A DNA stretch of 24,241 nucleotides from a virus, in the IMG/VR virus record IMGVR_UViG_3300028653_000055, positions 1-24,241 of that record. One strand, given 5' to 3'. The translations under genes were made by a program, and so were the position numbers. This document shows, piece after piece, positions 1 to 23,136 of this stretch; positions within the stretch are counted from its first letter, which is position 1, and every line of letters starts with the position of its first letter. Under the pieces are notes generated by a model. The model saw only the letters and a list, made by a program, of their open reading frames with translations. It made no database searches and was not told the origin of the DNA.

Positions 1-1842
1 GACATACGAAGAGCCGTTGCTTACGGGAATATAAGTGTTGCTAACCACATTCCCCGGTCCTACGAGTCCCGTGGAGCCTTGGGCTCCTGCCCCGCCCGTT
101 CCTCCAGTAGGCCCCGTCAAACCTGTCTGACCTTGAAGACCCATCTGGCCCTGCAGACCAGTTAGACCTTGAAGCCCGGTGGCTCCTTGGGCTCCTGCTC
201 CGCCCGTTCCTCCTGTAGGTCCTGTCAAACCAGTATTGCCTTGGACTCCTGTCTTTCCCGTTACTCCAGTTAATCCCTGAAGTCCCGTTAATCCTTGCAA
301 TCCTGTTAATCCTTGTAGTCCCGTTAGACCTTGCAGACCAGTGCCTCCTTGGGCTCCTGCCCCGCCCGTGCCTCCAGTAGGCCCCGTCAAACCTGTCTGA
401 CCTTGAAGACCTGTATTGCCTTGGACCCCAGTGAGCCCCTGTAATCCAGTAAAACCTTGAACTCCCGTTCGACCCTGGACTCCCGTTAGGCCCTGAAGTC
501 CTGTTTGACCTTGGACACCGGTTAGGCCCTGAAGTCCTGTTTGACCTTGGACCCCAGTGAGTCCCTGAAGCCCTGTCTGGCCCTGGACTCCGGTTAGGCC
601 TTGAAGCCCTGTCTGGCCCTGGACTCCGGTTAGGCCTTGAACCCCTGTTTGACCTTGGACACCAGTTAGGCCTTGAAGACCTGTTTGCCCCTGGACTCCT
701 GTATTTCCTTGAACTCCAGTATTTCCTTGAACTCCGGTTAGTCCCTGTAGACCTGTAAGACCTTGCAATCCTGTGAATCCTTGAACTCCAGTATTGCCTT
801 GAACTCCTGTAGGTCCTTGTAACCCTGTAGGACCCTGTAATCCTGTAGTACCTTGGACTCCGACGCCTGTAAACCCTTGAGGCAATATAATAGCACTTAT
901 GTTTCCCGTGGCATCGGTCACAACCATTCTCTGGCCAGTTCCAGATAGGTTTTGGAGTTGAACAGAACTCACCACATTTAAAGACCCAGTAACATCCGCG
1001 GTTCCAGAAAATACGACACTTGACCCGGACACGGTCATTGGCGAGTTTACGTAAGTAGAGCCATTGCTTACCGGTATATAGGTATTAGAAACCAAAGCTC
1101 CTGGGCCAGTTATACCCTGGAGACCTGTTATACCTTGCACTCCGGTGGATCCTGTAAAGCCTTGCGTGGACCCTGCACTAATCTGGACCCATACTCCCGT
1201 TCCCGTGGTCCCTGCAAATAGGGCACCATCCGTTTCCTGGAAAAGTAAAACAGGCTCGGGAGGACCTAACGGAGGGTAGTAGGTTTGGTCAAGAAAATTT
1301 GCAAGTCCCGTGATACCTTGGACGCCTTGTATTCCTTGGACACCAGTTCCACCAGAAACAGAGCCGGCAGATATTTGCACCCAATGGTCGGATCCTGCTA
1401 CGCCGGCAAATAAAGCTTGGTCTTGCTCGTTGTAAAGTAATTCCGGTGTCACTCCAAGTGACGGGTACGGTGTTTCGTCAAGAAAATTTATGGCTTGGGT
1501 TAAACCAGTGATGCCTTGCAACCCTGTCTGACCTTGAGCCCCGTCAGCCCCGTCAGCTCCAGCAGCTCCAGCTGGCCCTTTAGATCCTGCTGGTCCAGCG
1601 GGACCCGGAACCCCCAGACCGGTATGGCCTTGAACGCCGGTAGGATTTAAAGCTACCGAAGTATTCAAAGTGTTAACATTATCGTAAATGTCCGCAAAGA
1701 AAGCCTGCCATGGGCGTTTTACGGAGCCTGTGGTATTCCCTCCAGCATCACTTTCGACAATATCCGTCCTATTCGGTGGCGGTCCCAATTTTGGGACCGT
1801 GACCGGGGCGGGATTAGAAGGTTTTTTCTTTGGTGAGGCCAT
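1..1842 (-). CDS. Collagen-like phage fibre protein (C-terminus beyond window)
   Basis: The reading frame is open for 614 codons from ATG at 1842 to the window edge, so the C-terminus is missing. The first 40 residues are Lys/Pro-rich. Residues 43-60 (RPWQAFFADIYDNVNTL) precede a first Gly-X-Y stretch at about 69-113. Two copies of a roughly 45-residue module ending in WVQISAGS follow (118-161 and 181-225). Next comes a non-collagen domain (about 247-322, with SNTYIPVSNGS and GTGQRMVVTDATG), then about 90 Gly-X-Y triplets (about 323-593), mostly as G-x-Q-G-x-T hexapeptides. At the edge SNTYIPVSNGS starts again. I infer a trimeric, rod-like fibre or host-adhesion protein on the virion. The tailspike stop lies 2 nt upstream (TAAATATG). 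I see no good Shine-Dalgarno, so translation is probably coupled. Proline is scarce in the repeats, and Thr or Gln fills the Y position. The exact attachment site on the virion is unknown. Confidence 0.88.
   Translation of the reverse strand, partial: MASPKKKPSNPAPVTVPKLGPPPNRTDIVESDAGGNTTGSVKRPWQAFFADIYDNVNTLNTSVALNPTGVQGHTGLGVPGPAGPAGSKGPAGAAGADGADGAQGQTGLQGITGLTQAINFLDETPYPSLGVTPELLYNEQDQALFAGVAGSDHWVQISAGSVSGGTGVQGIQGVQGITGLANFLDQTYYPPLGPPEPVLLFQETDGALFAGTTGTGVWVQISAGSTQGFTGSTGVQGITGLQGITGPGALVSNTYIPVSNGSTYVNSPMTVSGSSVVFSGTADVTGSLNVVSSVQLQNLSGTGQRMVVTDATGNISAIILPQGFTGVGVQGTTGLQGPTGLQGPTGVQGNTGVQGFTGLQGLTGLQGLTGVQGNTGVQGNTGVQGQTGLQGLTGVQGQTGVQGLTGVQGQTGLQGLTGVQGQTGLQGLTGVQGQTGLQGLTGVQGQTGLQGLTGVQGRTGVQGFTGLQGLTGVQGNTGLQGQTGLTGPTGGTGGAGAQGGTGLQGLTGLQGLTGLQGLTGLQGLTGVTGKTGVQGNTGLTGPTGGTGGAGAQGATGLQGLTGLQGQMGLQGQTGLTGPTGGTGGAGAQGSTGLVGPGNVVSNTYIPVSNGSSYV
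79..141 (-). repeat. 63-bp direct repeat, copy A (copy B at 349-411)
   Basis: This segment matches 349-411 at 62 of 63 positions by eye, at an offset of exactly 270 nt. A third, more diverged copy begins at 187. All encode the GLTGPTGGTGGAGAQG motif. The near identity at silent sites suggests a recent duplication or gene conversion, not only protein-level constraint. Confidence 0.8.
484..699 (-). repeat. Six tandem 36-bp units inside the collagen tract
   Basis: Six consecutive 36-nt units encode GVQGQTGLQGLT; the second unit has Val for the second Leu. The units differ mostly at third codon positions. This is an obvious substrate for slippage or unequal recombination, which would change fibre length by 12 residues per event. 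Confidence 0.85.
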
Positions 1843-6207: not shown

Positions 6208-9200
6208 TTATCTCCAGAACGAGTCTAATGGAGGGCGTGTATCATTTTGTCTTTTATTGTTTATCATTTTGCCAAGTGTCGAGACCCCTTTACCAACTGC
6301 AAGTGCCGTTCCACCAGTGGCCGCGGCCATGGCTGGAGCGGATCTCAAGATGCTTTTTATACCTGGATTAAAAGAGCCATTATTCGCGATCGCGGACTTT
6401 ATTTGATTTTCAGAGAACGGTATATAAGTATGAGACTTAACCCCCATGGTATTATGCACTTCGTGGTCTTCAAAACCGAATCCATCATAATTCTTTTTAA
6501 TGTAGCGTTCCAGGCCTGGGGACTTTTCCATCAGGCCCATAAGTGGCCGCAAGTGCTCGGGTAGGGAAGAGCCCGCGAAATCCGGACCGCTCGCGAAGCC
6601 ATGAGTTTGCAGAACCTTATTTATAGTACCCCAATCATCTTTACTTTTAGGATACGTCTTCATATCGTACACGATATCCCTGATGTCTTTTTCCTGCTGT
6701 TTCAGCGTTTTTATTGCCAAGCCACGGAACCTCAAATCTTCTTCTTTTTGGCCCGTAGGTATTTTGTCCAATCGCTCTTGGTCATAAGTAGGGTGCTTTT
6801 TTTTATAAAAATAATCAATTGACTTTTGATAGTCTTTGGCTCTTTGAGCAAGTCCTTCTTTATCTGTAAGGGCGTTTGTTAGATTATTTATATCTCCTTT
6901 AAACATGTCGGACAGTGATGTTTTTTCTGTGATTGGATTCCTGATATTTAAGTAAGCAGGTGTCACATTTGATTGGAAACTTGGCTTATGGTATTGCAAA
7001 TCTCTCAAGGGGGCCCCATAAACAGCATATCCGTCCGAAACTTCTGGGTTGTCTGTCCAAAAAGAATGCCCGAGAATCCTTCCGCGCTCGGCCTTAGGAA
7101 ATTCTCCACTTTTTGGAACATCTGGCATTGTTCTGCCGTTTGTCACTATTTTAGGCTGACCGTTTTCATGAACAACTTTACTTGCGGTTTCGGGAGATTT
7201 TTCCCAGTCACCAAAAAAGGTCTTAAATTGCGGGGTCTTTTGTTGCGCTACTTGCGCCTCGGAGCCAATAGACTTGCCCCCGCCAATTGCACCACTAGGT
7301 TGGTTCTTTTGTGCTTTTAAGTTTTGTATATCTTTTAATTTTGCTTGATACCTACTGTTTAACTCTTGAGAGTTCCGGGCCTCTATAGTATAACCCGCCG
7401 CAGGACCCGATTTGATAGTTATAGAGTGATAGGGGTCAGTCTTCCCCAGGACACCTGGTGTCCCTCCTGTATATTCAGCTTTTGCCGCTGTGAAGTTTTT
7501 TACTATTTTTGCTCCCTCTACCGGATCCACAGGCAACATAGGTGGAATTCCGGGAGGAGGAGCTCCTTGGACTTTTTGTTTTAGTTCTGATATTTTCTTC
7601 TCGTCTTCCATTTTCTGTTTTAGAGAAGGATTAATTTTCTCAGGAGGAATTGCTTGACCGTCAGGAGCATATTTTGCTTGGCCTTTTGTGGCAAAGCCCG
7701 GACCTGCTGTACCTGGGCCTCCTGCATTGGGTTGAGGGCCTCCGCCCGCTCCACCTGTAGGCCCTGCGCCCGGATTAGTATTTGGACCAGTGCCTCCTTG
7801 AGTTCCTCCTGTAGGCCCGGCGCCCGCTCCGCCTTGAGCCCCGCCTGTAGGACCAGGTTCTGGTCCAATGCCCTCTTTTTCCGGAGAATATTTCCAGGCC
7901 TTATCAAACATTTTTTCAATGTAGCGATCGGGTCTGTTAAGTTCTTTTATTACAGTTTTTATCCCTAACCCGGAAGCTCCTTTTGCAAGGCTCAGGATAG
8001 CACCTGGATGGCCCATCAAGGCTCCCACAGCACCCATCGCTAATTCACTACCTGTATATACATCAGTTAAACCGGAGAACAATCCTGGCGAGGACTTTTG
8101 AAGGGATCTCACGGCTTGTTTGTTTATATCTTTTTCAATGTGCGAAAGAGCCCCATATTGATTCTTCAAGTCCTGGTATCCAGGACCTTGGACGGATTCA
8201 ATTGACTTATCTAACTGCTCTCGTAGTATAGATGCTATAGAGGCATCTACCCTGGCCTGGCCTAAATTTTTAATTCCTTTGCCGCTATAATATGCTGGTA
8301 AAGAATTATTTAAGTCGGCTATTCTTGCTTCTACAACTTCAGGAGGTTCTCCGTTAAGCTCAGCGATCGCTGCTTTTTGTTTTGTTGCGTACTCCCGGAC
8401 CTCGGGAGGATTCATTTTATAGTTTTTACCTTTTTCGTATTCTGCTAATTTATCAAGTGCCGGCTGGGTATTGACAGCCACACCTTCGTCTCCGGCCTGC
8501 GTGGCCATATCATGAAATTGCTTGTAGATTTCAGGCTTGGTTTGAGATATAGCCTGCGAAAACTCGACATTTGTTTTTATAGGCCGAGACACTTCTATAG
8601 GATTTCCTTGGGCATCCGTTGATTTAATTTTATCTATGGGATTTCCATTATAGTCAAGTAGATTAAGATTATTTTTATTCCCAGCAATAGTTTGCACAGC
8701 ATTTTCTGTTTTACCATAATAAGCTTCTCTTTGATTAGCCGTGGACCCAATATTTGAAGGCCTTATGCCTCGGTCAACTCCCTGCCGCACGGCCTGGGAA
8801 AAGTCCTGGGCGGTTACAGGTGGAGGTTGTACAGATTGTATCTTCCCGGTTTTATCAAAAATCCCTGAGGGCAAAGGACCTTTTATGTCATCAATGGTAT
8901 TTTTAATGCCATTTTTTATGCCTTTACCTAATACATCTAAAGTACTTGTACTACCTTTTAATTCTGCTGAGGCTAAAGGTAAGGCAGCTAATGCAACATT
9001 TCCCCCTGCAACAATATCTTTTTGGGCTCTTTCAGGTATCTTATTCCATATGTCAGAGATGGGTTGTGTTATGTTTCCTAAAGTTCTTCCAGGAAGATCG
9101 TTTGGGGGCTGTGTATCTTCTTCCAGATGCCCATACTTGGGAATTCCGAACTGTTTATTTTCTTCCTTAGGTCCATATGTGGGAATAGATGAGAGAACAT

Positions 9201-9654
9201 TTAATGGAAAATTATAGGCTCCCGATACAACCCCGCCTAATCCCCTTAATATTTTCTCGGGTACATTATTTACCTCATCTACGTCTTTAACAGTTTGACC
9301 ACCTTGGCGCCATAATTCTTTACTTGCATTTATAATTCCTGGCATGAAGCCGGGCCGGTCAGGGGGTGGGGGCGCTGAAGCTGGAGCAACAGGGGCTGCC
9401 GTTTGTTGAGCAGGACCATTATAAGGAGCATACCCATTATTTTGCGCGTCATAAAGTTGTCCTGAAGGCAAAGGAGCCCGCTCAGGTAAAGGAGCCTCCT
9501 CAGGACCTTTAGGCGCTGGATTTTGAGCCACCAAACTATTGTATTGCGGATATTTCTGCAACATCCGAGTGGCTAAATCCAGATTATCCATCCCGGAATA
9601 TACGGGATGTTTTTCTTTAATTTGAGCCGCAAATTCATTAATTGTTATAGACAT
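6208..9654 (-). CDS. Large putative ejection protein with C-terminal ADP-ribosyltransferase-like domain
   Basis: The first 42 residues (INEFAAQIKEKHPVYSGM, LATRMLQKYPQY) match a module common at the N-terminus of phage internal virion proteins. Small-residue hydrophobic segments at 213-232, 536-570 and 1105-1131 could interact with membranes. A Gly-rich linker spans 598-654. Residues about 807-1098 resemble the ART domain of polyvalent proteins: FKTFFGDWE, ASKVVHENGQPKIV, FWTDNPEVSDGYA, AYLNIRNP, YDGFGFEDHE and ENQIKSAIANNGSFNP follow the family order. The usual YHGT box is absent (TNGR instead), so activity is uncertain. I infer a protein packaged in the capsid and ejected with the DNA, in the way T4 Alt is. 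The start follows the previous stop by 2 nt (TAAATATG). The gene is AT-rich compared with most of the window. Confidence 0.8.
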   Translation of the reverse strand: MSITINEFAAQIKEKHPVYSGMDNLDLATRMLQKYPQYNSLVAQNPAPKGPEEAPLPERAPLPSGQLYDAQNNGYAPYNGPAQQTAAPVAPASAPPPPDRPGFMPGIINASKELWRQGGQTVKDVDEVNNVPEKILRGLGGVVSGAYNFPLNVLSSIPTYGPKEENKQFGIPKYGHLEEDTQPPNDLPGRTLGNITQPISDIWNKIPERAQKDIVAGGNVALAALPLASAELKGSTSTLDVLGKGIKNGIKNTIDDIKGPLPSGIFDKTGKIQSVQPPPVTAQDFSQAVRQGVDRGIRPSNIGSTANQREAYYGKTENAVQTIAGNKNNLNLLDYNGNPIDKIKSTDAQGNPIEVSRPIKTNVEFSQAISQTKPEIYKQFHDMATQAGDEGVAVNTQPALDKLAEYEKGKNYKMNPPEVREYATKQKAAIAELNGEPPEVVEARIADLNNSLPAYYSGKGIKNLGQARVDASIASILREQLDKSIESVQGPGYQDLKNQYGALSHIEKDINKQAVRSLQKSSPGLFSGLTDVYTGSELAMGAVGALMGHPGAILSLAKGASGLGIKTVIKELNRPDRYIEKMFDKAWKYSPEKEGIGPEPGPTGGAQGGAGAGPTGGTQGGTGPNTNPGAGPTGGAGGGPQPNAGGPGTAGPGFATKGQAKYAPDGQAIPPEKINPSLKQKMEDEKKISELKQKVQGAPPPGIPPMLPVDPVEGAKIVKNFTAAKAEYTGGTPGVLGKTDPYHSITIKSGPAAGYTIEARNSQELNSRYQAKLKDIQNLKAQKNQPSGAIGGGKSIGSEAQVAQQKTPQFKTFFGDWEKSPETASKVVHENGQPKIVTNGRTMPDVPKSGEFPKAERGRILGHSFWTDNPEVSDGYAVYGAPLRDLQYHKPSFQSNVTPAYLNIRNPITEKTSLSDMFKGDINNLTNALTDKEGLAQRAKDYQKSIDYFYKKKHPTYDQERLDKIPTGQKEEDLRFRGLAIKTLKQQEKDIRDIVYDMKTYPKSKDDWGTINKVLQTHGFASGPDFAGSSLPEHLRPLMGLMEKSPGLERYIKKNYDGFGFEDHEVHNTMGVKSHTYIPFSENQIKSAIANNGSFNPGIKSILRSAPAMAAATGGTALAVGKGVSTLGKMINNKRQNDTRPPLDSFWR

Positions 9655-12523: not shown

Positions 12524-14158
12524 TTATTTTTCAGCCGTGATATCGGCTACCGCCGATATAAGTACCACTTTATTAGGGTCTGAAACAGTTATTCGAAAGA
12601 CCCGGTCCCGGGAATTGCCCAGCCGGGTGAATTTTAAACGCTCCCTATAAGCTCCAGCTTTTCCCATCTTTTTCCATATCTCATTCTTAAAAGTAAACCC
12701 ACCATCATCACTGTAAGATAGCATGGCCTGCGGATCATAGGATTGGTCAGTGGGAGACACAGGATGGGGATTGCCAACACCTCGCTCGAAGTCCACTTCC
12801 ACCATATTAAAGAAAAGCCTTTTCCTGTCCTGATGGACGTGCGACCCCGTCCGGACTCTTCTTACTATTTCTCCATTGTCCAAGTAATAACTATCATCGA
12901 GAATATATACGTTACCGTTTCTATAGTCCCCACAGTAAACTTTATCAAGAAAGAAAACATAAGAATTCGCATAGTGCCTGTCCATGACCCCGGTGTTCTG
13001 GTTCCATGCACCTCGCTCGTGCCACATCCCTATTTGGTTCGATACGGCTAAGTTTGCATCGTATACCAATGTTCTATTTCCGTTGATAAATGATAAAATA
13101 TAAAACTGATGCCCGGACTGTGTGTATGTGTAACCTATAGCGTCTTTTATGTCCGGCAGCCCCTCGGTAATGAAATCTATAGAAGTTGTGGAACATTTTA
13201 TCGGTGAATAATTTTGAGTCATCCATACTTGCCCGTGGCCCTGGGTCGAGCTCCCCAGCCAAAAAAGATATTGACCATTTGATACTACACTGTTGGGAGC
13301 AATGGTCCCATTCGAGGTCACCCCTCCGTGTATCAAGGAGAAGGCCCCGGCCGTGGGTATTGCTGAACTGCTGTAACTGATAGAGCTACTCCCTGAATCT
13401 TTCCATACTTCGATGGACTGAGTCCCTATGATCCATAAATCACCGTTCAGCGAAGCTAAAGCGGAGATGTTGTCGGGGAGCGTTTCAGCGGAAGAATAGT
13501 TCAGAGGGTCCCAATGAAAACCATCATACAGGTTGCTCCAGTAAAACCTCTGGCTATTAAGCTCGTTAACTATAAACTTTCCCCCAAGAAAGCAGACATG
13601 CGTGCATTGGGGAAAGTACCCATACTGGGGCTCTGTATATCCGGTCATTATCGTGGGAAAATATCCACCCGTGATCTTGGCCAGTGTATTAGTTGTCAGA
13701 TTGAACATGTATCCGTTAAAGCCATCGACAAACATCATCCCAAGGCCCTGGTACTCCCCCGTGGGGTTGCCATTGGCATCTAAAATGGGCTGGTCGACGC
13801 CTATCCCATTGTCCGCAAAATTGACCCGGGTATTTCCGCTGTCTTCGATTGTTCCCCATTCCGTTACTTTCCCGTACTGGCTCACCTCGTAGAGTTTGTT
13901 CCCCGCCACGTAGAACATGCGGTTGTTGCTCGTGACAAAGGAACCCCGAACCGCCTTATTATTAGGCAAAGTGCAAAAAAGACGAAGACCGGGCGTGGAG
14001 TACAGGACCAATTCCGCCTTCTGCCGATCAGGGAACTGGTGGCTAGGCCAGTCCACAACTGTCCTGGCCAGTTCCGGATAGAAGTTTATGCACTCTTGGG
14101 CATTCACCGCACGAGAGCGACTTTCATACATTGGTCCGCAAAAGCCTATATCTGGCAC
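12524..14158 (-). CDS. P22 gp10-like tail hub / packaged DNA stabilisation protein
   Basis: This is the tail-hub protein that closes the portal-gp4 channel after packaging and carries the tailspikes. The N-terminus (IGFCGPMYESRSRAVNAQEC, INFYPE) and the segment DWPSHQFPDRQKAELVLYST with PGLRLF fit the Phage_stabilise family. The following beta-propeller-like repeats (GNKLYEVSQYGKVTEWGTI, VNFADNG, FYWSNLYDGFHWDPLNYSSA, LWIIGTQSIEVWKDSG) also fit. The length (544) is somewhat above P22 gp10 (about 470). The start codon is GTG. It is supported by AGGGG five bases upstream and by the family-like N-terminus. The ribosome binding site and start lie inside the last codons of the homing endonuclease gene. 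The neighbour order gp4-(endonuclease)-gp10-ejection proteins supports the call. Confidence 0.88.
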   Translation of the reverse strand: MPDIGFCGPMYESRSRAVNAQECINFYPELARTVVDWPSHQFPDRQKAELVLYSTPGLRLFCTLPNNKAVRGSFVTSNNRMFYVAGNKLYEVSQYGKVTEWGTIEDSGNTRVNFADNGIGVDQPILDANGNPTGEYQGLGMMFVDGFNGYMFNLTTNTLAKITGGYFPTIMTGYTEPQYGYFPQCTHVCFLGGKFIVNELNSQRFYWSNLYDGFHWDPLNYSSAETLPDNISALASLNGDLWIIGTQSIEVWKDSGSSSISYSSSAIPTAGAFSLIHGGVTSNGTIAPNSVVSNGQYLFWLGSSTQGHGQVWMTQNYSPIKCSTTSIDFITEGLPDIKDAIGYTYTQSGHQFYILSFINGNRTLVYDANLAVSNQIGMWHERGAWNQNTGVMDRHYANSYVFFLDKVYCGDYRNGNVYILDDSYYLDNGEIVRRVRTGSHVHQDRKRLFFNMVEVDFERGVGNPHPVSPTDQSYDPQAMLSYSDDGGFTFKNEIWKKMGKAGAYRERLKFTRLGNSRDRVFRITVSDPNKVVLISAVADITAEK

Positions 14159-14769
14159 AATAACCCCTGTTTTTTTAATAACCTGTACCGAGCCTGCGTA
14201 GCCACTATTTTTTGTGTGGTTTCTATTCTACGGGGCACTTTATTACGTATTCTTGATTCAATTTTTTTAGCTATATGCTCTGGGCTTTGTTTTTTTCCTA
14301 TCCAATGTGATTTTGTAGCACCAGAAGCAAATTTTTCTTTTTTTGTCTTACTAATTTTCTCCTTTACCCAGTCCGGTCTCTTTACACCTTTTAAAGGATT
14401 CCAACCTGTGGAATATCTTTTTCTTTTACCAGCACTAATTTTTTTGCAGGTTTCGATAGCCAACTTGTGTTCTGGCCATAAGGTTAATTCAAGATTATAA
14501 AGGGTTACTCCTGCATCTTTAAGTTCCGCTATCCAATATTGTTCTCTTTCAATAAGTTTTTCTACAGGTGTCTTCTCAATAATCATTTTTTCAAAACTTA
14601 TCTCACCGTGCTTTTTGAAAGAGCGTTGCAAATGAATATTTCGGTGAGTACCATTTCTCAACCCTTCAAAATGCTCTCGCATCCTTCTAAAATAATCATT
14701 AGTACTCCCAACATAAATTCCACCGGTTTTTTTATTTCGTATTTCGTATACGCACGGAATTTCGGTCAT
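14146..14769 (-). CDS. GIY-YIG homing endonuclease with NUMOD3-like DNA-binding repeats
   Basis: This free-standing 207-residue GIY-YIG endonuclease would cut DNA lacking its own gene and promote its spread. Residues 6-33 carry CVYEIRNKK, then IYVGSTNDYFRRMREH, matching the I-TevI YVGS-KRW-H region. Arg29 is the likely catalytic arginine and Glu76 (REQYWI) the likely metal-binding glutamate. GWNPLKGVKRPDWVKEKIS and WIGKKQSPEHIAKKIES look like NUMOD3 repeats. The frame opens further upstream, but the ATG at 14769 directly precedes the domain and follows the gp4 stop by one base (TGAAATG). The gene is AT-rich: 20 of 60 G+C at 14281-14340 versus 33 of 60 at 14881-14940 in gp4. Both flanking genes look complete, so I infer an intergenic insertion and not an intron. 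Confidence 0.88.
   Translation of the reverse strand: MTEIPCVYEIRNKKTGGIYVGSTNDYFRRMREHFEGLRNGTHRNIHLQRSFKKHGEISFEKMIIEKTPVEKLIEREQYWIAELKDAGVTLYNLELTLWPEHKLAIETCKKISAGKRKRYSTGWNPLKGVKRPDWVKEKISKTKKEKFASGATKSHWIGKKQSPEHIAKKIESRIRNKVPRRIETTQKIVATQARYRLLKKQGLLCQI
14159..14168 (-). promoter_or_regulatory. Ribosome binding site deciding the GTG start of the gp10-like gene
   Basis: On the minus strand AGGGG is followed by TTATT and then GTG. The site overlaps the final codons of the endonuclease gene, so translation of the hub gene is probably influenced by ribosomes finishing that gene. No ATG lies at a comparable position. Confidence 0.65.
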
Positions 14770-14770
14770 T

Positions 14771-15853
14771 TCACCATACCCTATCACTGTATATGTTATA
14801 CCACGGGTTGCCCCGTGTGAGCAAGGCCGAGTCCGTGGCCATGATATCCGGCTGATAATTCGAGTCCCGCAAAGCACTTAAGGCTTTTGTGGCCATGCCC
14901 TCGATACCTGGGACGTCTTTCCCAAATTCCGGAGCCATCTTAACGGCCAAGGAAAGACTTAAGGCATCCTTGTATCCCGGAGGCAGACAGACCACGTCCT
15001 GGAGGGACGTGAATTTGGTGAACTGGTGCCACTGAGAGATGTTGATTTTATAGGCTTTAGTGGGATTGGGCCATATGTTAAGGGTTCCGTTCGGCCACGA
15101 ATGTTCATAGTAAAAGAACCGCGGATAGGAACTCGTCACGGCCTTCTGAAAGATCTGATTCCACCGCGCCGATGTCACGGACTCCAGATCCCAGTCATTG
15201 TTATACCCCGGACTCGTATCCCGGATGAAGCAAGAGGTTATCTTGATAGGAGTTAGAGTCACAAAATCGCAGACCAAGGGGTCCGGGCCTATGATATAGG
15301 TCTGTTTATTGGCAACAGTTGGAAATAATTGATTTTCAATGTAGTAGCAAAAGGTCTTATTCACCGTCCACTCTTCAAGCATCCAGTTTAGGACCTGCAG
15401 GAAATCGGTTGCCTGCTGAGCTTCGGGAGTTTCCGTAGCTCCTATAACTTGTATTAGACGCATTGCTCTTTTTATGATATCTATCACATATGTTTTCGGT
15501 ACAAGCGTTCCATCATTACAGGTTTCAGGGATTACAATCTCAACGGTAGCTGTTCCAACCAAGCCCGTGGTCACTTCCGTGGCAGTTACGATGTAATTGC
15601 CCTGGACATCAACTTGGGCTGTGAATAGTCCTGTGGTGCTTATCGTTCCACCGCCATTTACTGACCAGGTGTATTGATACAAAGTTTGATCGGGCATAGG
15701 ATTCCCGAGCTGGTCCAGGACCGTGGCCGTGTATTGCTGAGTGGAGCCGTTGGCGACCTCCGCATTTTGCGGAGTAACCTCCACGGATGTAGCCACTAAA
15801 CTGACGTCTTTGTAAATACTTTTACCGTATGTACTATTTCGACCGTAAGGCAT
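14771..15853 (-). CDS. Ig-like domain fused to P22 gp4-like head-tail adaptor
   Basis: Residues about 22-108 form a bacterial Ig-like (BIG2-type) domain: SVEVTPQNAEVANGSTQQYT, a Gly-rich turn (SVNGGGTISTTGLF), and YIVTATEVTTGLVGTATVE. Residues about 118-355 match the gp4-like adaptor family of short-tailed phages: RAMRLIQVIGATETPEAQQA, LNWMLEEW, YPRFFYYEHSWPNGTLNIW, LPPGYKDALSLSLAVKMAPE. In P22, gp4 binds the portal after packaging and begins the tail; there it is 166 residues and has no Ig domain. An N-terminal Ig domain would probably project from the neck. AAAGGA lies upstream of the ATG. The glycosyltransferase gene precedes it and the endonuclease gene starts 1 nt after its stop. Confidence 0.85.
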   Translation of the reverse strand: MPYGRNSTYGKSIYKDVSLVATSVEVTPQNAEVANGSTQQYTATVLDQLGNPMPDQTLYQYTWSVNGGGTISTTGLFTAQVDVQGNYIVTATEVTTGLVGTATVEIVIPETCNDGTLVPKTYVIDIIKRAMRLIQVIGATETPEAQQATDFLQVLNWMLEEWTVNKTFCYYIENQLFPTVANKQTYIIGPDPLVCDFVTLTPIKITSCFIRDTSPGYNNDWDLESVTSARWNQIFQKAVTSSYPRFFYYEHSWPNGTLNIWPNPTKAYKINISQWHQFTKFTSLQDVVCLPPGYKDALSLSLAVKMAPEFGKDVPGIEGMATKALSALRDSNYQPDIMATDSALLTRGNPWYNIYSDRVW

Positions 15854-15868
15854 GATTTTTTTTTTCCT

Positions 15869-16474
15869 TTATCCGTGTTCCGCACGATTGCATAAGTCAA
15901 TAAACACCTTAAACCCGGCCTTTACGGCATCTTGACAAAAAGACACGTCTTCCGTACACACGTCGGCCTGGTCCCCTACACGGAGTATGTTATTTCTCCA
16001 CCAGGGGTATTCCATGGTCTCGAAAACTTTCTTCTTAATCAATAAGCATCCGGCGCCGACCCATAAAGCCTCTTTCAAGCCTTTGTCGGAAACTGTAAAC
16101 CAATCTTCACGACAATACCGGGCCCCGACCGGGGCTCCAACTATATAGTTATCCGATTCCCGGGTTGGATATGCACCTCCGATGATATCCTTGTCTGCCT
16201 CGATCAATCGTTCGACTAATTCAGGCGAGAAAGAATTATCATCATCCATTGATAAAAAGTAATCGTAAGGCAATGTCTGTTTGAGGGGGGCTATGGAATT
16301 GCGAGGCTCGGCCTGGGAGGCAATGTTTCTCCCACGGACACAATGAGTGCCCGATATGATAAAAATCTGAAAGTCTATCTTGCTTTTATCATATGTTTTT
16401 AAAGCATCGATAGTCTTTTGGGTCTTTATCGGTATAGGATTTCTAACCGAAGGTATTCCTACTCTGACAACCAT
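15869..16474 (-). CDS. GT2-like glycosyltransferase
   Basis: This looks like a small cytosolic GT-A fold glycosyltransferase. Residues 2-12 (VVRVGIPSVRN) are the usual first strand. CVRGRNIAS (45-53) matches the RN-containing helix of this group. DYFLSMDDDNSFSPE (71-85) contains the DxD-type metal and nucleotide-sugar site (Asp77-Asp79). WVGAGCLLIKKKVFE (138-152), TEDVSFCQDAVKAGFKVFID (174-193) and His200 form the typical acceptor side. At 201 residues it is compact but seems complete. It lies among structural genes, with AAGAGG upstream of its ATG. It could modify virion fibres, such as the Thr-rich collagen fibre or the neighbouring repeat fibre, or alter host surface glycans. Donor and acceptor are unknown. 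Confidence 0.78.
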   Translation of the reverse strand: MVVRVGIPSVRNPIPIKTQKTIDALKTYDKSKIDFQIFIISGTHCVRGRNIASQAEPRNSIAPLKQTLPYDYFLSMDDDNSFSPELVERLIEADKDIIGGAYPTRESDNYIVGAPVGARYCREDWFTVSDKGLKEALWVGAGCLLIKKKVFETMEYPWWRNNILRVGDQADVCTEDVSFCQDAVKAGFKVFIDLCNRAEHG

Positions 16475-16485
16475 CTATGCCTCTT

Positions 16486-17970
16486 TTAAATAGGATATCT
16501 TATATAGCCAAATGCTTGCCTTGTCGTGGCTTTGCTCACCCATGTACCGTTTCCACCGGTCGAGTATAGCGAACAAGTTGACCCCCCGGCTGCAATACCC
16601 GCATTACCAACCACGCTGGTGTTATCATCCTGGGCTTGGACTGTCGTATTATAAGATCCAGCGGGGGCAAGACTGTTCATTGGATAGGGCAGAGTAAAAT
16701 GGAACGCTGACCCAGACCCAGTCCCAGTCAAGTAATAGTAAACATCTACACTCGAGCCTATTTTTTTATAGAATAAGGCGCAGCCCGAAGTAGAAGTAAG
16801 ACCAGTGACCGAGGCGCTTGCTAACCAGTTGACAATGGTGCTGTCGGTCAAGACAGCATTCGAATTAAGAGTAAAAGTCGGGCCAGTAAATACAAACCCT
16901 GCGGAATTTGCAACAAGGTTGGTGTTTGTTGTTAGAGTTATGCCGCCTGGGCCCTGGATTCCTACCGAGCCTCCAGACGCAGAGCAATCCACCGAAAAGC
17001 CATTAAGCCATAAAGTGTCAGAACCGGAGATGGCGCTAATTTTTAATTGGCCGGCCGAATCTCCTGAGACCTGAAGCGCATGGTTTACCCCAGCTAAGTC
17101 GTTTGGAATCAAGTTTATAGAGTCATATTCAGCTGCTGTAAGCGAGACTGTGTTCGGAGCCCCCGACACGGTTAGGCTTTGGCTGTTTGCGGTTAAAGCT
17201 ATGGTAGACGGAGAGTTTATTGAGCAACTCCCAGAACTCGCGAGCATCGCAACGGAAGCCCCCTCGAGAGATAGCGTGTCAGACCCTGTATTTGAAACGA
17301 CATGAACTTTATTGTTGGAATCACCAGATATAACTATTTCATGCGTCCCGTCATTAGTATCTACTACATTTATAACTAATGAGTCTGTTATTATATTGAG
17401 AGGAGTACTTGCTTCTGTAGAGATATAAACATTATCCGTAGCACCTGATAAAACTAAGGGATTTCCGTCAAGGGACATATTGACGTAAGGTGCCGAAACT
17501 GACATTCCATTAGTCGCATTAAGCGACAAACTGTTTGCCGCATTGACTGTAAAAGCAGTAGAATCTATTTCAAGCCCATCTGCGGCTCCGCCACTTTGTG
17601 CGTTTACAATAACCTTATTATTCGAATCCCCGGATATGATCAAGGAGTGTGAAGCCTCGTTACTATCTATTGCTGTTACCGTAACGGAAGCATCAGAAGA
17701 ATAAGCTTTTACAAAAATGCTTCCTGAAGGATCGGCATAAACCGAGGGAATAACATTAACATCCCCATTACCATTGACTCCCGCGACGGATGCTCGATGC
17801 GCAATAAAGGGCATATAAGCCCCGGACGAATCGGACCTTTTTTTGCCGTCTATCGTTCCAATAACTATGGAGCGTTCAATTTCGTTAAAATGTGTTATCT
17901 CAGTCGAGTCCCAAGGCTCTTCCGAGCTAGCATCGTTGGTATAAAAACCCTGTGGGCTTATAAACGGCAT
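16486..17970 (-). CDS. Beta-rich repeat fibre protein with receptor-binding-like C-terminus
   Basis: Residues 1-60 (MPFISPQGFYTNDASSEEPW, then FNEIERSIVIG) are probably an attachment domain. From about 101 to 370 there are alternating copies of a beta motif. The long form, SGDSNNKV or SGDSAGQL, is at 113, 215 and 302. Shorter relatives (LVLSGATDNVYIS, LTVSGAPNTVSLT) are near 172 and 266. The C-terminal 115 residues (NWLASASVTGLTSTSG, YKKIGSSVDVYYYLTG, FHFTLPYPMN, AFGYIRYPI) resemble the terminal receptor-binding domains of phage tail fibres. The whole protein is Ser/Thr/Gly/Asn-rich and almost without charged residues in its middle. Its position, before the glycosyltransferase and gp4, suggests a neck, head or side fibre. 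AAGGAGCG gives a strong ribosome binding site. The family is not named with certainty. Confidence 0.72.
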   Translation of the reverse strand: MPFISPQGFYTNDASSEEPWDSTEITHFNEIERSIVIGTIDGKKRSDSSGAYMPFIAHRASVAGVNGNGDVNVIPSVYADPSGSIFVKAYSSDASVTVTAIDSNEASHSLIISGDSNNKVIVNAQSGGAADGLEIDSTAFTVNAANSLSLNATNGMSVSAPYVNMSLDGNPLVLSGATDNVYISTEASTPLNIITDSLVINVVDTNDGTHEIVISGDSNNKVHVVSNTGSDTLSLEGASVAMLASSGSCSINSPSTIALTANSQSLTVSGAPNTVSLTAAEYDSINLIPNDLAGVNHALQVSGDSAGQLKISAISGSDTLWLNGFSVDCSASGGSVGIQGPGGITLTTNTNLVANSAGFVFTGPTFTLNSNAVLTDSTIVNWLASASVTGLTSTSGCALFYKKIGSSVDVYYYLTGTGSGSAFHFTLPYPMNSLAPAGSYNTTVQAQDDNTSVVGNAGIAAGGSTCSLYSTGGNGTWVSKATTRQAFGYIRYPI

Positions 17971-17980
17971 AATTCGCTCC

Positions 17981-18307
17981 TTATACTGCGAAATCCGGTG
18001 AATTTAATTTATTCCCTATTGGCTTAATATCGGTAAACATCAGTTTTTCTTTTTCCTCGTATCGAGCTAAACAGCTCTCTACCCCGTTGTCAATTTGAGG
18101 TTTTAATTCAACAACATCCGCCAATTGCTTCGGGCCTATCCGTTTTCTTGGCCTCATATCCGATGCCCGGATCTTGACATTAGTAGGCGGATCAAACTCG
18201 ATAACGGGCTCGTCGACCTTGCGGATCTTGTCTTCTTCTTCCTGCGAATGAGCGGTTTTCCAGCCGCCTTCCCGCAGGTAAATACATTTCGGATATTCTG
18301 TTCCCAT
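17981..18307 (-). CDS. Hypothetical small protein in the head-neck region
   Basis: This 108-residue hydrophilic protein is not one I recognise. It begins MGTEYPKCIYLREGGWKTAH, followed by an acidic and basic stretch (SQEEEDKIRKVDEP), a short strand-like segment (VIEFDPPTNVKIRASD) and a basic patch (MRPRKRIGPKQ). No signal peptide or membrane segment is visible. AAGGAAAG upstream supports the start, and the spacing to the fibre gene is 10 nt. Position alone allows a neck, chaperone or small virion role. Confidence 0.62.
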   Translation of the reverse strand: MGTEYPKCIYLREGGWKTAHSQEEEDKIRKVDEPVIEFDPPTNVKIRASDMRPRKRIGPKQLADVVELKPQIDNGVESCLARYEEKEKLMFTDIKPIGNKLNSPDFAV

Positions 18308-18404: not shown

Positions 18405-18626
18405 TTAGCCTAAAATGCCTTTATTGTGCAGGGCGGTTATAATACTATTGACAGCGGCGTAAGCCGTAGCTGTGCCGTCTGTACCGATATTAATAGCCGT
18501 AATAGCGTTTGCTTGTGCACAAGAAAGTCCATGAAAACCGACCAGAGAGGTCGACGTCTGCCCAAGAGTATTGCCTGAGGGGCAATCACCCATAACCAGT
18601 TGGGTTGAATCTCCACCGTAAGCCAT
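18405..18626 (-). CDS. Small putative head decoration / head-fibre-like protein
   Basis: The 73-residue product begins MAYGGDSTQLVMGDCPSG, then TLGQTSTSLVGFHG, and ends in a helix-like segment AVNSIITALHNKGILG. This layout (a loop with LGQ..T.LVGFHG, then a VN..I.AL...G.. tail) is common in small phage proteins encoded beside coat genes and annotated as head-fibre or decoration-like. It lies directly downstream of the coat gene, past a terminator. AAAGGAT precedes the ATG. The assignment rests on position and a remembered pattern, so the function is tentative. Confidence 0.62.
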   Translation of the reverse strand: MAYGGDSTQLVMGDCPSGNTLGQTSTSLVGFHGLSCAQANAITAINIGTDGTATAYAAVNSIITALHNKGILG

Positions 18627-18680: not shown

Positions 18681-19934
18681 TTACGCACCCAACACGCGGC
18701 ATGCGAGTTGAGCATACAGCGGAACCCATCCGTAGAGCACATCAAGACGAGCCACGATATTATCGTTATTTATATCGTATTGACGGACTAAACGAACGCT
18801 AATACCATCCCACACTTCCCGAGCAGCCATATCCACACCCTTCGGAAGCACAAGATCGGCCGTGGCCAACGCAAATGCATCTTTGTGGTAGATAAGGTTG
18901 TTGCTATAGCTAGTTGAGGCAGCCCCAATGAAAGTCAGGGCGGCTCCGTTATCCGGAGAGGCCGTAACTGTCTGGGTTGCACCACTGGTGATGATGGAAG
19001 GAGAAATCGTCAGAGTTGCTGTTCCACCAGCTGCTGTAGTAGCTGATGTAACAACGAACTGCTGAGCAGTTCCCGTGTCCGCTTTTGTTTCCTGGTTGAC
19101 CGTGTTAACGGCTGTTCCAGAAGAGAAATAAAACACGTCGCCAGCAACAAAAGTATGACCCGATGTTGCATAGATCGTAAGAGAGCTTCCCGTCTGCGAA
19201 CCAGTAGAGCATGAAGCATCACCAGTCGCAAGACGTGACCCAACTGTGAGACGAGGAATGTTCTGGGAGACCTTAAAGTCCATACCAAGAGCGTTTCCGA
19301 TTGTTCCTCTTTCGTACTGTTCCGAAAGCACGGATTGAGGATTAAACAAACCGGAAAGTCCGGCAACACCAGCGGCCTGTGCAAACGGGCTGAGTATGCA
19401 ATACCGTTCCGATTCAGGAGCGGCATAGTTGCTCAAGTAAGCACTACCATTCAAGAAAACACCAGGGGCCTTCGCGGACGAATTGGTCGAATCCGTACCG
19501 GCACCAGGTTGTATTCCTGCAACACCAACCGTGTTGTAGACATTGGTGAAAAGCTGTAACCCATCGTAGTCCATTGTTGAAGCAAGGAGCAAGCCGGCGG
19601 GACGAATGTAACGATCGGAGAACTCGTCGATCGTCAGGGTCAGGTCCGCGGTCGAGAAACGCATGTCGACGTGCTTCTGGGTAGAAACGGTCAACGTTAC
19701 GTAGTCTTCCACAGTGTCCTGAACTGAAAGAGCGGGACCTGTCGAAACCGTATAGCGGTTAGGCTTACGGATCCTAAGGGACGGACCTATTTTACCGGAG
19801 ACCGTCGCTCCGGAATTCGCGAAGCTATCATCATAACTTCTGGTTACCGATGAAGCAAAATGGAGGCTGTTATGCAGCACCCGAAGGGCCTCGCGGGTAA
19901 TCATCGTGGGGGTCAGAAAATTGTTACCAGCCAT
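18681..19934 (-). CDS. P22-like major capsid (coat) protein
   Basis: The coat protein forms the icosahedral shell by assembling around the scaffold. The 417-residue length is close to P22 gp5 (430). The N-terminal arm (NNFLTPTMITREALRVLHNS) and the core segments VEDYVTLTVSTQKHVDMRFS, LTIDEFSDRYIRPAGLLLAS and CILSPFAQAAGVAGLSGLF fit the P22 coat family. A Thr/Ser/Gly-rich block at about 230-345 sits where P22 gp5 has its insertion (I) domain. Its end (LDVLYGWVPLYAQLACRVLG) is also family-like. The scaffold gene is immediately upstream and portal before that, as in P22. AAGGAAG precedes the ATG, and an intrinsic terminator follows the gene. Confidence 0.92.
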   Translation of the reverse strand: MAGNNFLTPTMITREALRVLHNSLHFASSVTRSYDDSFANSGATVSGKIGPSLRIRKPNRYTVSTGPALSVQDTVEDYVTLTVSTQKHVDMRFSTADLTLTIDEFSDRYIRPAGLLLASTMDYDGLQLFTNVYNTVGVAGIQPGAGTDSTNSSAKAPGVFLNGSAYLSNYAAPESERYCILSPFAQAAGVAGLSGLFNPQSVLSEQYERGTIGNALGMDFKVSQNIPRLTVGSRLATGDASCSTGSQTGSSLTIYATSGHTFVAGDVFYFSSGTAVNTVNQETKADTGTAQQFVVTSATTAAGGTATLTISPSIITSGATQTVTASPDNGAALTFIGAASTSYSNNLIYHKDAFALATADLVLPKGVDMAAREVWDGISVRLVRQYDINNDNIVARLDVLYGWVPLYAQLACRVLGA

Positions 19935-20952: not shown

Positions 20953-23136
20953 TTAAAATCCTTGTTGCTCTTGGACAAGCCCACCCTGCTGGACCGCGGA
21001 CACCGGCGTAGAGGGCACCTGGACCGGCGTCGAAGCTGACTGCTTGGAAAGCGGAGCCTGCCCTATTTGATGCAGCTTTACCGCCGAATCCACATTCGAC
21101 GAAATGATATTATGCGACTGCCGCACATGCTCTTGCGCCAAAGCATACTTCGCCTTCTCAATTTCAGTCTGGGCCTTGACCTCGGTATCGTGTACCTTGG
21201 CCTGTATTTCCATCTGCTTGTCCTTAAGCGCTTTCTGTAAATTACCAATAAGAGCCTGCATTTGAGAATTCTGCTGTTGTAAACCCTGTGCCTGCTGCAT
21301 GGTCTGCTGATGCGCCTGCATAAGCTTTTGCATGTCCCCGACCACGGCCCGCATCTGCTGCTCCTGCATCTCCTGCGTAGACCCCGCCTCGTCCTGACCT
21401 ATAACACCATTCATGTTGGGCTGGGCCTGAATAAACCGCTTCAACCGATCGGCAACCTCGCCACTTAAAGGATTATCGAGCATCCGCATGATAAGATCAG
21501 GTGCCACAGTACCAACAAGTGGTATTTGAGGTAAAACCTGGGCCAAGGTCGTAGCCGCTTCAACACGTTTAGTTTCATAGCTGGGTCCTATGTCAATAAC
21601 TACATCATAATTACCCACTGTCATGTCGTAAACACGCCCATCAGGGCCCGGGTGCTGGGTATTTATGGAAACTATCTTATCCGTCATGTCCTCGCCCAGG
21701 CACCTTACCATTCTCTCCCTGTTATAGAAAATAGGGATTAAATCTATCAAAATCTTGCCCAAAAGGTGATACCCCCGCGCCAGGTTGTCAATAAAGTGAA
21801 AATTGGAGATATCACCTTGGCGTTGTCGAGCAATGATGGCTTTTCCCGAAATTTCATTTGACTGTGCACCCAAAGAACTATCGTAAATGCCCGATATTTC
21901 CTTCATCTGTTGTGCGGATAGAGTGATTCCCTGAAGGAAAGCGCCCTCAACCTCAACAGAAGGGAGTCTTATGGGCGGAGGAACAGGGGCACCATCGTGA
22001 GACAACGGACTATAACGTAAAAAGGGCAAATTCTTTCTGTTAAGCTCTTTCCATTCAGGGAATCGCTCAATTTGACCCGCCGCGGCAAGGAACGGGGACT
22101 TGGGCGAGTTAGCCACCTTCTCAGTATAGGCGGTGAAGAAGTAATTGTAGGACCTTTGAGGGTCTTTTAAGAAACGGGTAATCGAAATCCAAGTCTTTTT
22201 GCCCGTGTCGTCCGCGGAAGGTATCTCCGGACCCATGACCGGTATAATCGGGATGTATTTACCAGGCCAGTCCTTCTGTTCAAGAATTTCATTCTCAGAC
22301 ATCAAGTACCACTTGATGGTTTTCTTTATCGAGTCACGTTCATCAACAATTTCGAGGCCCTTGGGCACTTTCTTCTTGTCATCAATAACCGTTCCGTCGC
22401 TCAATTCGTAAATCGTCTTCTTTTCCTGTTCAACATTCCAGTATTCAGCGACAAAGACATAGTCTTTGCCCTCCCAGTTCGCATCTCCTACCGAACTGGA
22501 AGCAAAATTTGCCATTTTTGCCTTGGGATACTTGAGCTTAAACTCATCTTTCGACATCCTGGACCGCACAAAAGCATATTCAGCATCGCTGAAATCAGCA
22601 TATTTGCACAAATGGACGGGAAAATACACGGAAAAGGGATTCTGTATCCGCTCCAGGTACAATTCCTGGTCAAAACTGTTATCATCGATATATTCGGAAA
22701 GAACACGGAAATAGCCAATCCCACAAACGACTTGGTAAAAGGTTGCATCGTCTATCGCGGCTTTGGAATTTCCGTTGTTCAAAATGTGTCTTATCATCCC
22801 GTCCACGACCTGGGCCGTGTCGGGGTCCGTGAGACTGTCAACAGGACGAATTTTAATCGTTGGGCGGTTCTGCCTCATATCATTTATGATCCGATAGCAG
22901 AATTCCGGGATTTTGTTGTTCGTGAGCACGGGCCGGCGGTCTTCCGTCCGATCGCGCATGATGGCTTCGGGCCATTGACGACCACCGAAAAAGTACAGGT
23001 CCTCCAAGGATTCTTGGCGGGCGGCACTCGTGTTTTCCTGGATCTGGTCAAAACGAGCCAAAGCTATTTTCAAGACCTTTTCATCAGGGCTTAGCCCGGT
23101 CGTGTTAACTAAAGAGTTTTCTTCGTTTATTGCCAT
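20953..23136 (-). CDS. P22-like portal protein
   Basis: The portal forms the ring at one capsid vertex through which DNA is packaged and ejected. At 727 residues it is almost exactly the length of P22 gp1 (725). Segments typical of P22-type portals include RRPVLTNNKIPEFCYRIIND with MRQNRPTIKIRPVD (67-100), FYQVVCGIGYFRV (133-145), DPQRSYNYFFTAYTEKVANS (325-344), QQMKEISGIYDSSLGAQSNE (409-428) and YDVVIDIGPSYETKRVEA (510-527). Residues about 585-690 are a long Gln-rich helix (MRAVVGDMQKLMQAHQQ), matching the C-terminal alpha-helical barrel that extends into the capsid. The ribosome binding site is weak: only GAG lies upstream of the ATG. Confidence 0.93.
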   Translation of the reverse strand: MAINEENSLVNTTGLSPDEKVLKIALARFDQIQENTSAARQESLEDLYFFGGRQWPEAIMRDRTEDRRPVLTNNKIPEFCYRIINDMRQNRPTIKIRPVDSLTDPDTAQVVDGMIRHILNNGNSKAAIDDATFYQVVCGIGYFRVLSEYIDDNSFDQELYLERIQNPFSVYFPVHLCKYADFSDAEYAFVRSRMSKDEFKLKYPKAKMANFASSSVGDANWEGKDYVFVAEYWNVEQEKKTIYELSDGTVIDDKKKVPKGLEIVDERDSIKKTIKWYLMSENEILEQKDWPGKYIPIIPVMGPEIPSADDTGKKTWISITRFLKDPQRSYNYFFTAYTEKVANSPKSPFLAAAGQIERFPEWKELNRKNLPFLRYSPLSHDGAPVPPPIRLPSVEVEGAFLQGITLSAQQMKEISGIYDSSLGAQSNEISGKAIIARQRQGDISNFHFIDNLARGYHLLGKILIDLIPIFYNRERMVRCLGEDMTDKIVSINTQHPGPDGRVYDMTVGNYDVVIDIGPSYETKRVEAATTLAQVLPQIPLVGTVAPDLIMRMLDNPLSGEVADRLKRFIQAQPNMNGVIGQDEAGSTQEMQEQQMRAVVGDMQKLMQAHQQTMQQAQGLQQQNSQMQALIGNLQKALKDKQMEIQAKVHDTEVKAQTEIEKAKYALAQEHVRQSHNIISSNVDSAVKLHQIGQAPLSKQSASTPVQVPSTPVSAVQQGGLVQEQQGF

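What the first reader, a model, noticed from the sequence alone, without database searches (positions are those of the whole stretch)
15869..16474. Glycosyltransferase in the structural operon: possible modifier of Thr-rich fibres
A GT2-like gene with a DDD motif lies between two structural genes, and the same operon encodes a collagen-like fibre with many G-x-T triplets. In Bacillus BclA, threonines of GPT collagen triplets are O-glycosylated. I infer that this enzyme may glycosylate the phage fibre or the Ser/Thr-rich fibre encoded just upstream.
Basis: inference. Interest (0 to 1): 0.5.

Follow-up and report, generated by a model that had tools for sequence, protein, structure and literature searches.

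The report
Phage sugar-transferase beside variable fibre gene
A phage from environmental DNA carries, among its particle-building genes, an apparently intact enzyme for attaching sugars that seems to be inherited together with a variable fibre gene next to it, which suggests that the phage decorates its own particle with sugars, although no sugar has been shown.

Summary
Window 15869-16474 (minus strand) encodes a 201-aa protein, 11 nt after a Ser/Thr-rich fibre gene and 15 nt before a gp4-like adaptor gene. It reaches no Pfam cut-off, but matches PHROG_1574 ("unknown function", E 8.7e-24) and is modelled as a GT-A glycosyltransferase (pLDDT 84; closest solved fold STIV A197, Z 17.4). D77, D79, D176 and H200 are invariant in 44 relatives.

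The family is not collagen-specific. A member lies near the coat gene in 64 of 74 P22-like viral loci; of 16 such records searched that are not known to be cut at the critical place, 11 have it and none has collagen repeats. The window's enzyme is a separate lineage in a second slot, between fibre and gp4. The closest phage keeps the collagen-like gene (pS 0.06) but has fibre, enzyme and gp4 replaced together (pS 0.78-0.86). So the adjacent fibre is the preferred acceptor. Against this, the three records with a close relative of the enzyme and enough sequence all have the Thr-rich collagen, which stays a live rival.

Virion glycosylation is known in mycobacteriophages; this looks like a new member of that kind. 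Activity, donor and acceptor are untested.

The parts
15869..16474 (-). GT-A-type glycosyltransferase, PHROG_1574, 201 aa ('slot B' enzyme)
   Evidence: PHROG_1574 E 8.7e-24; AF2 model pLDDT 84, pTM 0.85; STIV A197 Z 17.4; D77/D79/D176/H200 invariant in 44
16486..17970 (-). variable Ser/Thr-rich fibre-like protein, 494 aa: N-terminal ~60 aa conserved in the clade, body variable; preferred acceptor. 'Fibre' is inferred from composition and place
   Evidence: PF02368 Big_2 21.9 bits, just below its cut-off 22.8; N-terminal homology and body divergence; S+T 24.5%; co-replaced with the GT
14771..15853 (-). P22 gp4-like head-tail adaptor with an N-terminal Ig-like (Big_1) domain, residues ~1-108
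   Evidence: PHROG_12985 (unknown function) E 8e-43, head-tail adaptor PHROG_637 E 7.5e-7, Big_1 E 5e-6 below cut-off; its match in Pseudomonas phage PAE2 is the gene annotated P22 tail accessory factor; co-replaced with the GT
17981..18307 (-). 108-aa protein of unknown function; by place and size the counterpart of the small gene after the slot-A GT in relatives
   Evidence: no Pfam match
18405..18626 (-). 73-aa small protein directly after the coat gene; in L007-L011 a small ORF (76-93 aa, alike by eye only) holds this place and is followed by a slot-A GT, which the window lacks
18681..19934 (-). P22-type coat protein
   Evidence: PF11651 E 7.5e-33, PHROG_283 E 1e-69
1..1842 (-). collagen-like fibre, cut by the window end, G-x-Q G-x-T hexads; rival acceptor
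   Evidence: triplet count; PF01391 six places, best E 2.6e-12
20953..23136 (-). P22-type portal (context: head genes of the same operon)
   Evidence: PF16510 E 7.5e-160

Best explanation
A small, soluble, metal-dependent GT-A glycosyltransferase, made with the virion proteins, transfers a sugar from a host nucleotide-sugar to hydroxyl side chains of a phage structural protein before or during assembly. The most likely acceptor is the variable Ser/Thr-rich fibre encoded immediately upstream, with which (and with gp4) the enzyme is inherited as a cassette. The likely use is to change the virion surface (shielding, stability or receptor contact). Shown here: gene, GT-A fold as a model, invariant catalytic-type residues, purifying selection, operon position, joint replacement with the fibre in one pair of phages. 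Inferred: catalytic activity, timing, donor, acceptor, purpose.
For: GT-A fold; closest solved fold A197 of STIV, a viral enzyme proposed to glycosylate the virus's own coat (PMC10551542 passages). D77, D79, D176, H200 invariant in 44. Place in the structural operon with 11 and 15 nt gaps. Window against L002: pS portal 0.07, scaffold 0.01, coat 0.09, gp10 0.09, collagen N-terminal 330 residues 0.06, but fibre 0.78, GT 0.86, gp4 0.82; the GT keeps pN 0.13. The three phages with the window-type GT have fibre bodies with 22.3-25.9% S+T; four measured relatives with another ORF in that place have 11.9-21.4% (L005 not measured). A PHROG_1574-type GT sits within 4 kb downstream of the coat gene in 64 of 74 viral loci, in at least one member of 32 of 40 coat clusters, and a relative sits between major capsid protein and tail tubular protein A genes in MW202711, so a place among head and tail genes is recurrent.
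Against: No activity, donor or glycan was shown. Other genes also differ between window and L002 (gp507 pS 0.68, gp1148 0.57, g73 0.43, gp437 0.40, g108 0.39, spike 0.34), so joint replacement may be linkage, not function; one edge of the cassette coincides with a GIY-YIG endonuclease gene. Fibre bodies of the window and L011, which share the GT type, are not detectably homologous (blastp E 0.03-0.09), so the GT does not track one fibre type. L009's fibre body (21.4% S+T) nearly reaches the window-type range. The three closest GT holders all have the collagen as well. In the cyanophages opened, the GT gene is a few genes from baseplate genes, not beside a recognised fibre.
Confidence: 0.45

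Rival explanations
1. The acceptor is the collagen-like fibre: the enzyme O-glycosylates y-position threonines of the G-x-Q G-x-T hexads and so stabilises or shields the triple helix, as the first reader recalls for BclA.
For: Window, L002's and L011's records, with GTs at least 45% identical, all have Thr-in-y collagen; L011 is more distant by coat (62%) than L005-L009, which lack this GT (71-74%). The cyanophage DSL-LC02, a relative by GT, also has collagen repeats. Human LH3, mimivirus R699 and COLGALT1, collagen glycosyltransferases, rank close behind A197 by fold (Z 14.0-16.5).
Against: The collagen N-terminal part is unchanged between window and L002 (pS 0.06) while the GT is replaced. 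Sf-FS3, Bellamy and MW202711 have related GTs and no collagen match. In LH3 and R699 the matched range appears to be the accessory, not the catalytic, domain (ranges; two tandem domains in PMC11838735), at 9-13% identity. Thr in y is usual in bacterial collagens, most of them without glycosylation.
Confidence: 0.2
2. The acceptor is the coat protein or the small protein after it, as in mycobacteriophage capsids; the window's enzyme took over the role of a slot-A GT that its lineage does not have.
For: Slot-A GTs lie within 1.2 kb after the coat gene in 63 of 74 viral loci; window and L002 lack that GT and have only the slot-B one. Capsid and tail-tube glycans are reported for mycobacteriophages (PMC12619734 passage).
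Against: The slot-B GT is a separate lineage (0.998 support) and L011 has both, so they are unlikely to be interchangeable; the coat is nearly unchanged (pS 0.09) where the GT is replaced.
Confidence: 0.2
3. The enzyme does not act on the virion but on host surface glycans (superinfection exclusion or serotype conversion) or on phage DNA.
For: Phage GTs with such roles are known (PMC12619734 passage). Among 21 P22-like records searched, 9 have an integrase, and 7 of those 9 carry the slot-A GT, so lysogeny is possible in the wider group.
Against: The gene lies inside the structural operon with short gaps; the model has no helix longer than 11 residues; no integrase match in L011's or L008's records, which may be incomplete. 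Of bacterial-genome loci with a related coat only 1 of 37 has the GT near it, not what a lysogenic-conversion gene would suggest. Of the window's 18 listed genes 17 were scanned with Pfam and none is a base-modification gene; the window is a fragment.
Confidence: 0.15

Closest known systems
STIV A197 (archaeal virus GT-A enzyme, PDB 2c0n)
   Same: Small (191 residues in the chain), viral, GT-A fold without extra domains, DxD and catalytic Asp; closest solved fold (Z 17.4, rmsd 2.3, 159 aligned, 19% identity); the virus's coat is glycosylated (passages)
   Different: Archaeal virus of another kind; acceptor not proven there either; low identity; its gene neighbourhood was not examined
Mycobacteriophage virion glycosylation (Freeman et al. 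2023; paper itself not held, seen only as cited)
   Same: Phage-encoded glycosyltransferases thought to decorate the phage's own particle (PMC12619734 and PMC11256854 passages)
   Different: Capsid and tail-tube acceptors there; in Maravista GT genes lie near the 3' end of the genome, not among head genes; there glycans were reported, here none
PHROG_1574
   Same: Window protein E 8.7e-24; ten of ten further GTs scanned also hit it best
   Different: The family has no assigned function
Bacillus BclA glycosylation
   Different: BclA is a spore protein; here enzyme and collagen are linked by co-occurrence only; hexads are GxQ-GxT, GPT is 5 of 116 triplets in the window
Collagen glycosyltransferases LH3/PLOD3, COLGALT1, mimivirus R699
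   Same: GT-A (Rossmann) fold, among the best fold matches
   Different: 9-14% identity; they modify hydroxylysine; the match for LH3 and R699 appears to be the accessory domain

Membership tests
GT-A fold glycosyltransferases | GT-A fold | tested here: met
   AF2 model pLDDT 84, pTM 0.85; 171 PDB matches at E <= 0.001, most of the 50 shown are GTs, some are nucleotidyltransferases; Z 17.4 to A197
GT-A fold glycosyltransferases | DxD metal/nucleotide motif, catalytic Asp, C-terminal His ligand | tested here: met
   D77, D79, D176, H200 are the only four invariant columns in 44 sequences; their roles are recalled, not measured
Pfam PF00535 (GT2) | score above the gathering cut-off | tested here: not met
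   15.3 bits against 23.3
PHROG_1574 | profile match over most of the protein | tested here: met
   E 8.7e-24, residues 47-197 of 201
Virion-glycosylating viral GTs (A197-like, mycobacteriophage-like) | virion protein carries a glycan that depends on the enzyme | not testable with these tools
   needs virions and mass spectrometry
Virion-glycosylating viral GTs (A197-like, mycobacteriophage-like) | gene among or next to virion structure genes (not required in mycobacteriophages) | tested here: met
   between fibre and gp4, gaps 11 and 15 nt
Collagen-specific glycosyltransferases | enzyme family occurs only with a collagen substrate | tested here: not met
   related GTs without collagen match in Sf-FS3, Bellamy and circular MW202711; slot-A GT and no collagen match in 11 of 16 records
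Collagen-specific glycosyltransferases | close homologues (>= 45%) co-occur with Thr-rich collagen | tested here: inconclusive
   3 of 3 records with enough sequence; a fourth, G004, is cut inside the spike gene; the three are two lineages only
O-antigen converting phage GT (gtr type) | partner flippase and membrane-bound GT genes beside it | tested here: inconclusive
   neighbours are fibre and gp4; no dedicated membrane-segment prediction was made

The most novel reading that the evidence does not exclude
P22-like viruses carry a two-slot virion glycosylation system: a PHROG_1574 glycosyltransferase (in some cases joined to a methyltransferase-like part) locked to the coat gene, and a second, exchangeable sugar enzyme locked to an exchangeable fibre, so that particle glycans are swapped together with the protein that carries them; in the window lineage the same enzyme also decorates a Thr-rich collagen fibre.
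Probability: 0.15. Interest if true: 0.7.

Novelty: new member of a known kind. Interest (0 to 1): 0.42.

Why it matters
If true, glycosylated virions are not a speciality of mycobacteriophages but common in a large group of environmental podoviruses, and a family now listed as 'unknown function' gets a testable role. A fibre inherited with its own sugar enzyme would be a simple way to vary a phage surface in one recombination step.

Tried and rejected
Collagen-only reading: weakened, not excluded. 'GT marks strictly virulent phages' (from 64 of 74 viral loci against 1 of 37 bacterial-genome loci, L118's minus-strand hit not counted, and 0 of the 9 phage records opened out of 91 with a coat match): dropped, since 7 GT-bearing records have an integrase; on a coat tree of 116 leaves presence changes 14 times by parsimony against a mean of 38.6 (minimum 29) in 200 shuffles, so much is clade effect. 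'Slot B always holds a GT': not established. L005's 246-aa ORF is nucleotidyltransferase-like (PF12804 E 9.3e-6, 26.4 bits, just under its cut-off of 27); L010's two ORFs give at best E 0.012; the ~170-aa ORF of L007-L009 matches nothing convincing (L007's and L009's, L009's), shows no profile similarity to the GT (nor do L010's), and its model failed (pLDDT 33, not searched further). phmmer against PDB sequences gave nothing. A first single-sequence search with the GT found one other contig. G002's lack of collagen was first counted as a negative (note) and withdrawn because the contig ends just after the spike gene. Papers: no paper in the held library had phage + collagen-like + tail fiber + glycosyltransferase + glycosylated, nor P22-like + podovirus + glycosyltransferase + coat protein + tail, nor 4 of the 5 terms; the library is limited, so this is no proof of absence from print.

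Full report
What is there. The window is the whole of a 24,241-base virus record with genes of a P22-like phage: portal (PF16510, E 7.5e-160), coat (PF11651, E 7.5e-33), head closure (PHROG_578, E 4.3e-100). The 18 genes I list run on the minus strand.

Is it a glycosyltransferase? By sequence the case is modest: PF00535 at E 0.019, below its cut-off, no NCBIfam match, but PHROG_1574 at 8.7e-24, a family without a function. tblastn finds 101 phage records, 95 of them named Synechococcus, Prochlorococcus or cyanophage; the 60 rows listed are 27-37% identical and some are annotated 'glycosyltransferase'. An alignment of 44 relatives (the window and 43 of the 44 representatives; L118's, on the other strand, was left out) has exactly four invariant columns, D77, D79, D176 and H200, which I read, from recalled knowledge of GT-A enzymes, as the DxD pair, the catalytic base and a metal ligand. 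The model made from this alignment is good (pLDDT 84, pTM 0.85). Its neighbours in the PDB are mostly glycosyltransferases: STIV A197 first (Foldseek E 1.4e-9; Z 17.4), then human LH3 (Z 16.5), mimivirus R699 (15.6), yeast Mnn9 (15.0), COLGALT1 (14.0), with SpsA at 12.8. The presence of collagen-modifying enzymes in that list is striking but is fold similarity at 9-14% identity, and for LH3 and R699 the matched ranges (296-516 and 253-455) appear to be the accessory domain behind the catalytic one (PMC11838735, passages).

Where relatives of the gene sit. A coat search in IMG/VR gave 80 loci, the cap. An iterated profile of the GT domain finds a member within 4 kb downstream of the coat gene in 65 of 75 loci with at least 1.5 kb there; without L003, which is the same contig as L002, 64 of 74; in 32 of 40 coat clusters at 90% identity at least one member has it, in 30 all have it. 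In 63 of the 74 it lies within 1.2 kb ('slot A'); in five of the six such loci listed one ORF of 76-93 aa comes before it. Sixteen of these ORFs are longer than 340 aa; in L075 the extra part resembles a methyltransferase (PF13578 E 2.2e-4, below cut-off), in L043 and L081 Pfam shows nothing. Bacterial-genome loci with a related coat differ: 1 of 37, and none of nine phage records that I opened, of 91 with a coat match. I first thought of a difference between free and integrated phages, but seven GT-bearing records have an integrase, and the tree points to clade structure.

The window's gene is not in slot A. Window and L002 lack a slot-A GT; theirs is in a second place, between the fibre and gp4 ('slot B'). 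L011 and its near-copy L012 have both. A tree of the 44 GTs plus four phage relatives puts the three slot-B proteins together (0.988) and, with cyanophages, MW202711 and L107 (0.998), apart from the slot-A proteins; the order inside that group is unresolved (0.087). Other close relatives have different ORFs in slot B: a nucleotidyltransferase-like one in L005 (PF12804 just under cut-off), two ORFs of uncertain kind in L010, and an unassigned ~170-aa ORF in L007-L009.

Which protein might be the acceptor? The best internal evidence is the comparison with L002, a phage with 97% identical coat. Synonymous difference (pS) is 0.01-0.09 for scaffold, portal, coat and gp10 and 0.06 for the first 330 residues of the collagen-like protein, but 0.78 for the fibre, 0.86 for the GT and 0.82 for gp4; nucleotide identity falls from 94-100% upstream to 68-85%, with stretches that do not align, and is 94-100% again after it. 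The enzyme was thus exchanged together with fibre and gp4 and independently of the collagen gene, while it stayed under purifying selection (pN 0.13). Other parts of the genome are mosaic too (gp507 0.68, gp1148 0.57, g73 0.43, gp437 0.40), so this is linkage evidence from one pair, not proof of function. The fibre family shares an N-terminal stretch of about 60 residues; the bodies differ. Body S+T content is 25.1, 22.3 and 25.9% in window, L002 and L011 (window-type GT) and 11.9, 17.8, 21.4 and 13.4% in L007, L008, L009 and L010; L005 was not measured. The bodies of window and L011 are not detectably related.

The collagen idea. The hexads are real: Thr fills the y position in 56 of 116 triplets of the window, 46 of 104 in L002's partial gene and 80 of 181 in L011's. 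For comparison a published table gives 48.3% Thr in y for Gram-positive bacteria and 8.9% for viruses (PMC3368898, passages), and bacterial collagens are in most cases not glycosylated (PMC8968730, passages); Thr glycosylation was not observed in the recombinant prophage collagen EPclA. Among 20 P22-like records, collagen matches occur in two, both with a window-type GT; the third holder, G004, is cut inside the spike gene. Of the 18 without a match I set aside G004 and G002 (which ends 162 nt after its spike gene); of the remaining 16, 11 have a slot-A GT and none has collagen. Some of these 16 are fragments. Among eight records with more distant relatives of the window's GT, one (DSL-LC02) has collagen and seven do not; four of the seven are IMG/VR contigs that may be incomplete, one is the circular 39.7-kb MW202711, whose GT lies between capsid and tail tubular protein A genes and which has ORFs downstream, one annotated tail fiber, with 30-33% S+T. 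So collagen is not required for the family; for the closest relatives the question is open.

Comparison with the known. The nearest precedent in kind is viral self-glycosylation: STIV A197, called essential for the virus, with a glycosylated coat but an unproven acceptor (PMC10551542 and PMC4187194, passages), and mycobacteriophages with glycans on capsid and tail tube (seen only as cited in PMC12619734 and PMC11256854, passages; the original paper is not held). The window's enzyme would be a new member of that kind in P22-like phages. What is less usual is the cassette with a variable fibre and the recurrence of the family beside the coat gene.

Verdict. Observation confirmed; interpretation partly supported; the fibre upstream preferred over the collagen; activity and acceptor untested.

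Noticed in passing
window 14146-14877 (-): GIY-YIG endonuclease ORF (PF01541 E 4e-13), GC 0.38, overlapping the ends of gp4 and gp10; absent in L002, where gp4 and gp10 are adjacent. It marks one edge of the exchanged fibre-GT-gp4 stretch.
   Followed up: partly
loci L002-L082 against L112-L154: Coat-adjacent PHROG_1574 GT in 64 of 74 viral loci but 1 of 37 bacterial-genome loci with a related coat; integrases occur in GT-bearing records, so lifestyle alone does not explain it.
   Followed up: partly
L075 5867-7084 and 15 other ORFs >340 aa: Slot-A GTs with a long C-terminal extension, methyltransferase-like in L075: possible methylated glycan.
   Followed up: partly
window 15530-15853 (-): The gp4-like adaptor has an N-terminal Ig-like domain (below Pfam cut-off), by sequence present also in L002, L005 and L007-L009 but not in L010 and L011.
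   Followed up: no
G003 contig 26347-29703 (in L102), collagen-like gene: Its N-terminal part (FGSNYDFGFSPLYMDDG) repeats the N-terminal motif of the same phage's gp4 (FGSNYAFGASPLYMDDG), perhaps a shared docking peptide.
   Followed up: no
window 23155-23775 (-): Histidine phosphatase (PF00300 E 3.7e-30) just before the portal gene.
   Followed up: no
window 6208-9654 (-): The 1148-aa protein, by place an ejected or injected virion protein, matches ART-PolyVal (PF18760, ADP-ribosyltransferase of polyvalent proteins, E 2.5e-9, 38.5 bits over cut-off 31.2) at residues 830-983.
   Followed up: no
L165 2749-3414: Cyanophage Sf-FS3 has a gene annotated prolyl 4-hydroxylase about 400 nt before its PHROG_1574-like GT, a few genes from baseplate genes.
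   Followed up: no
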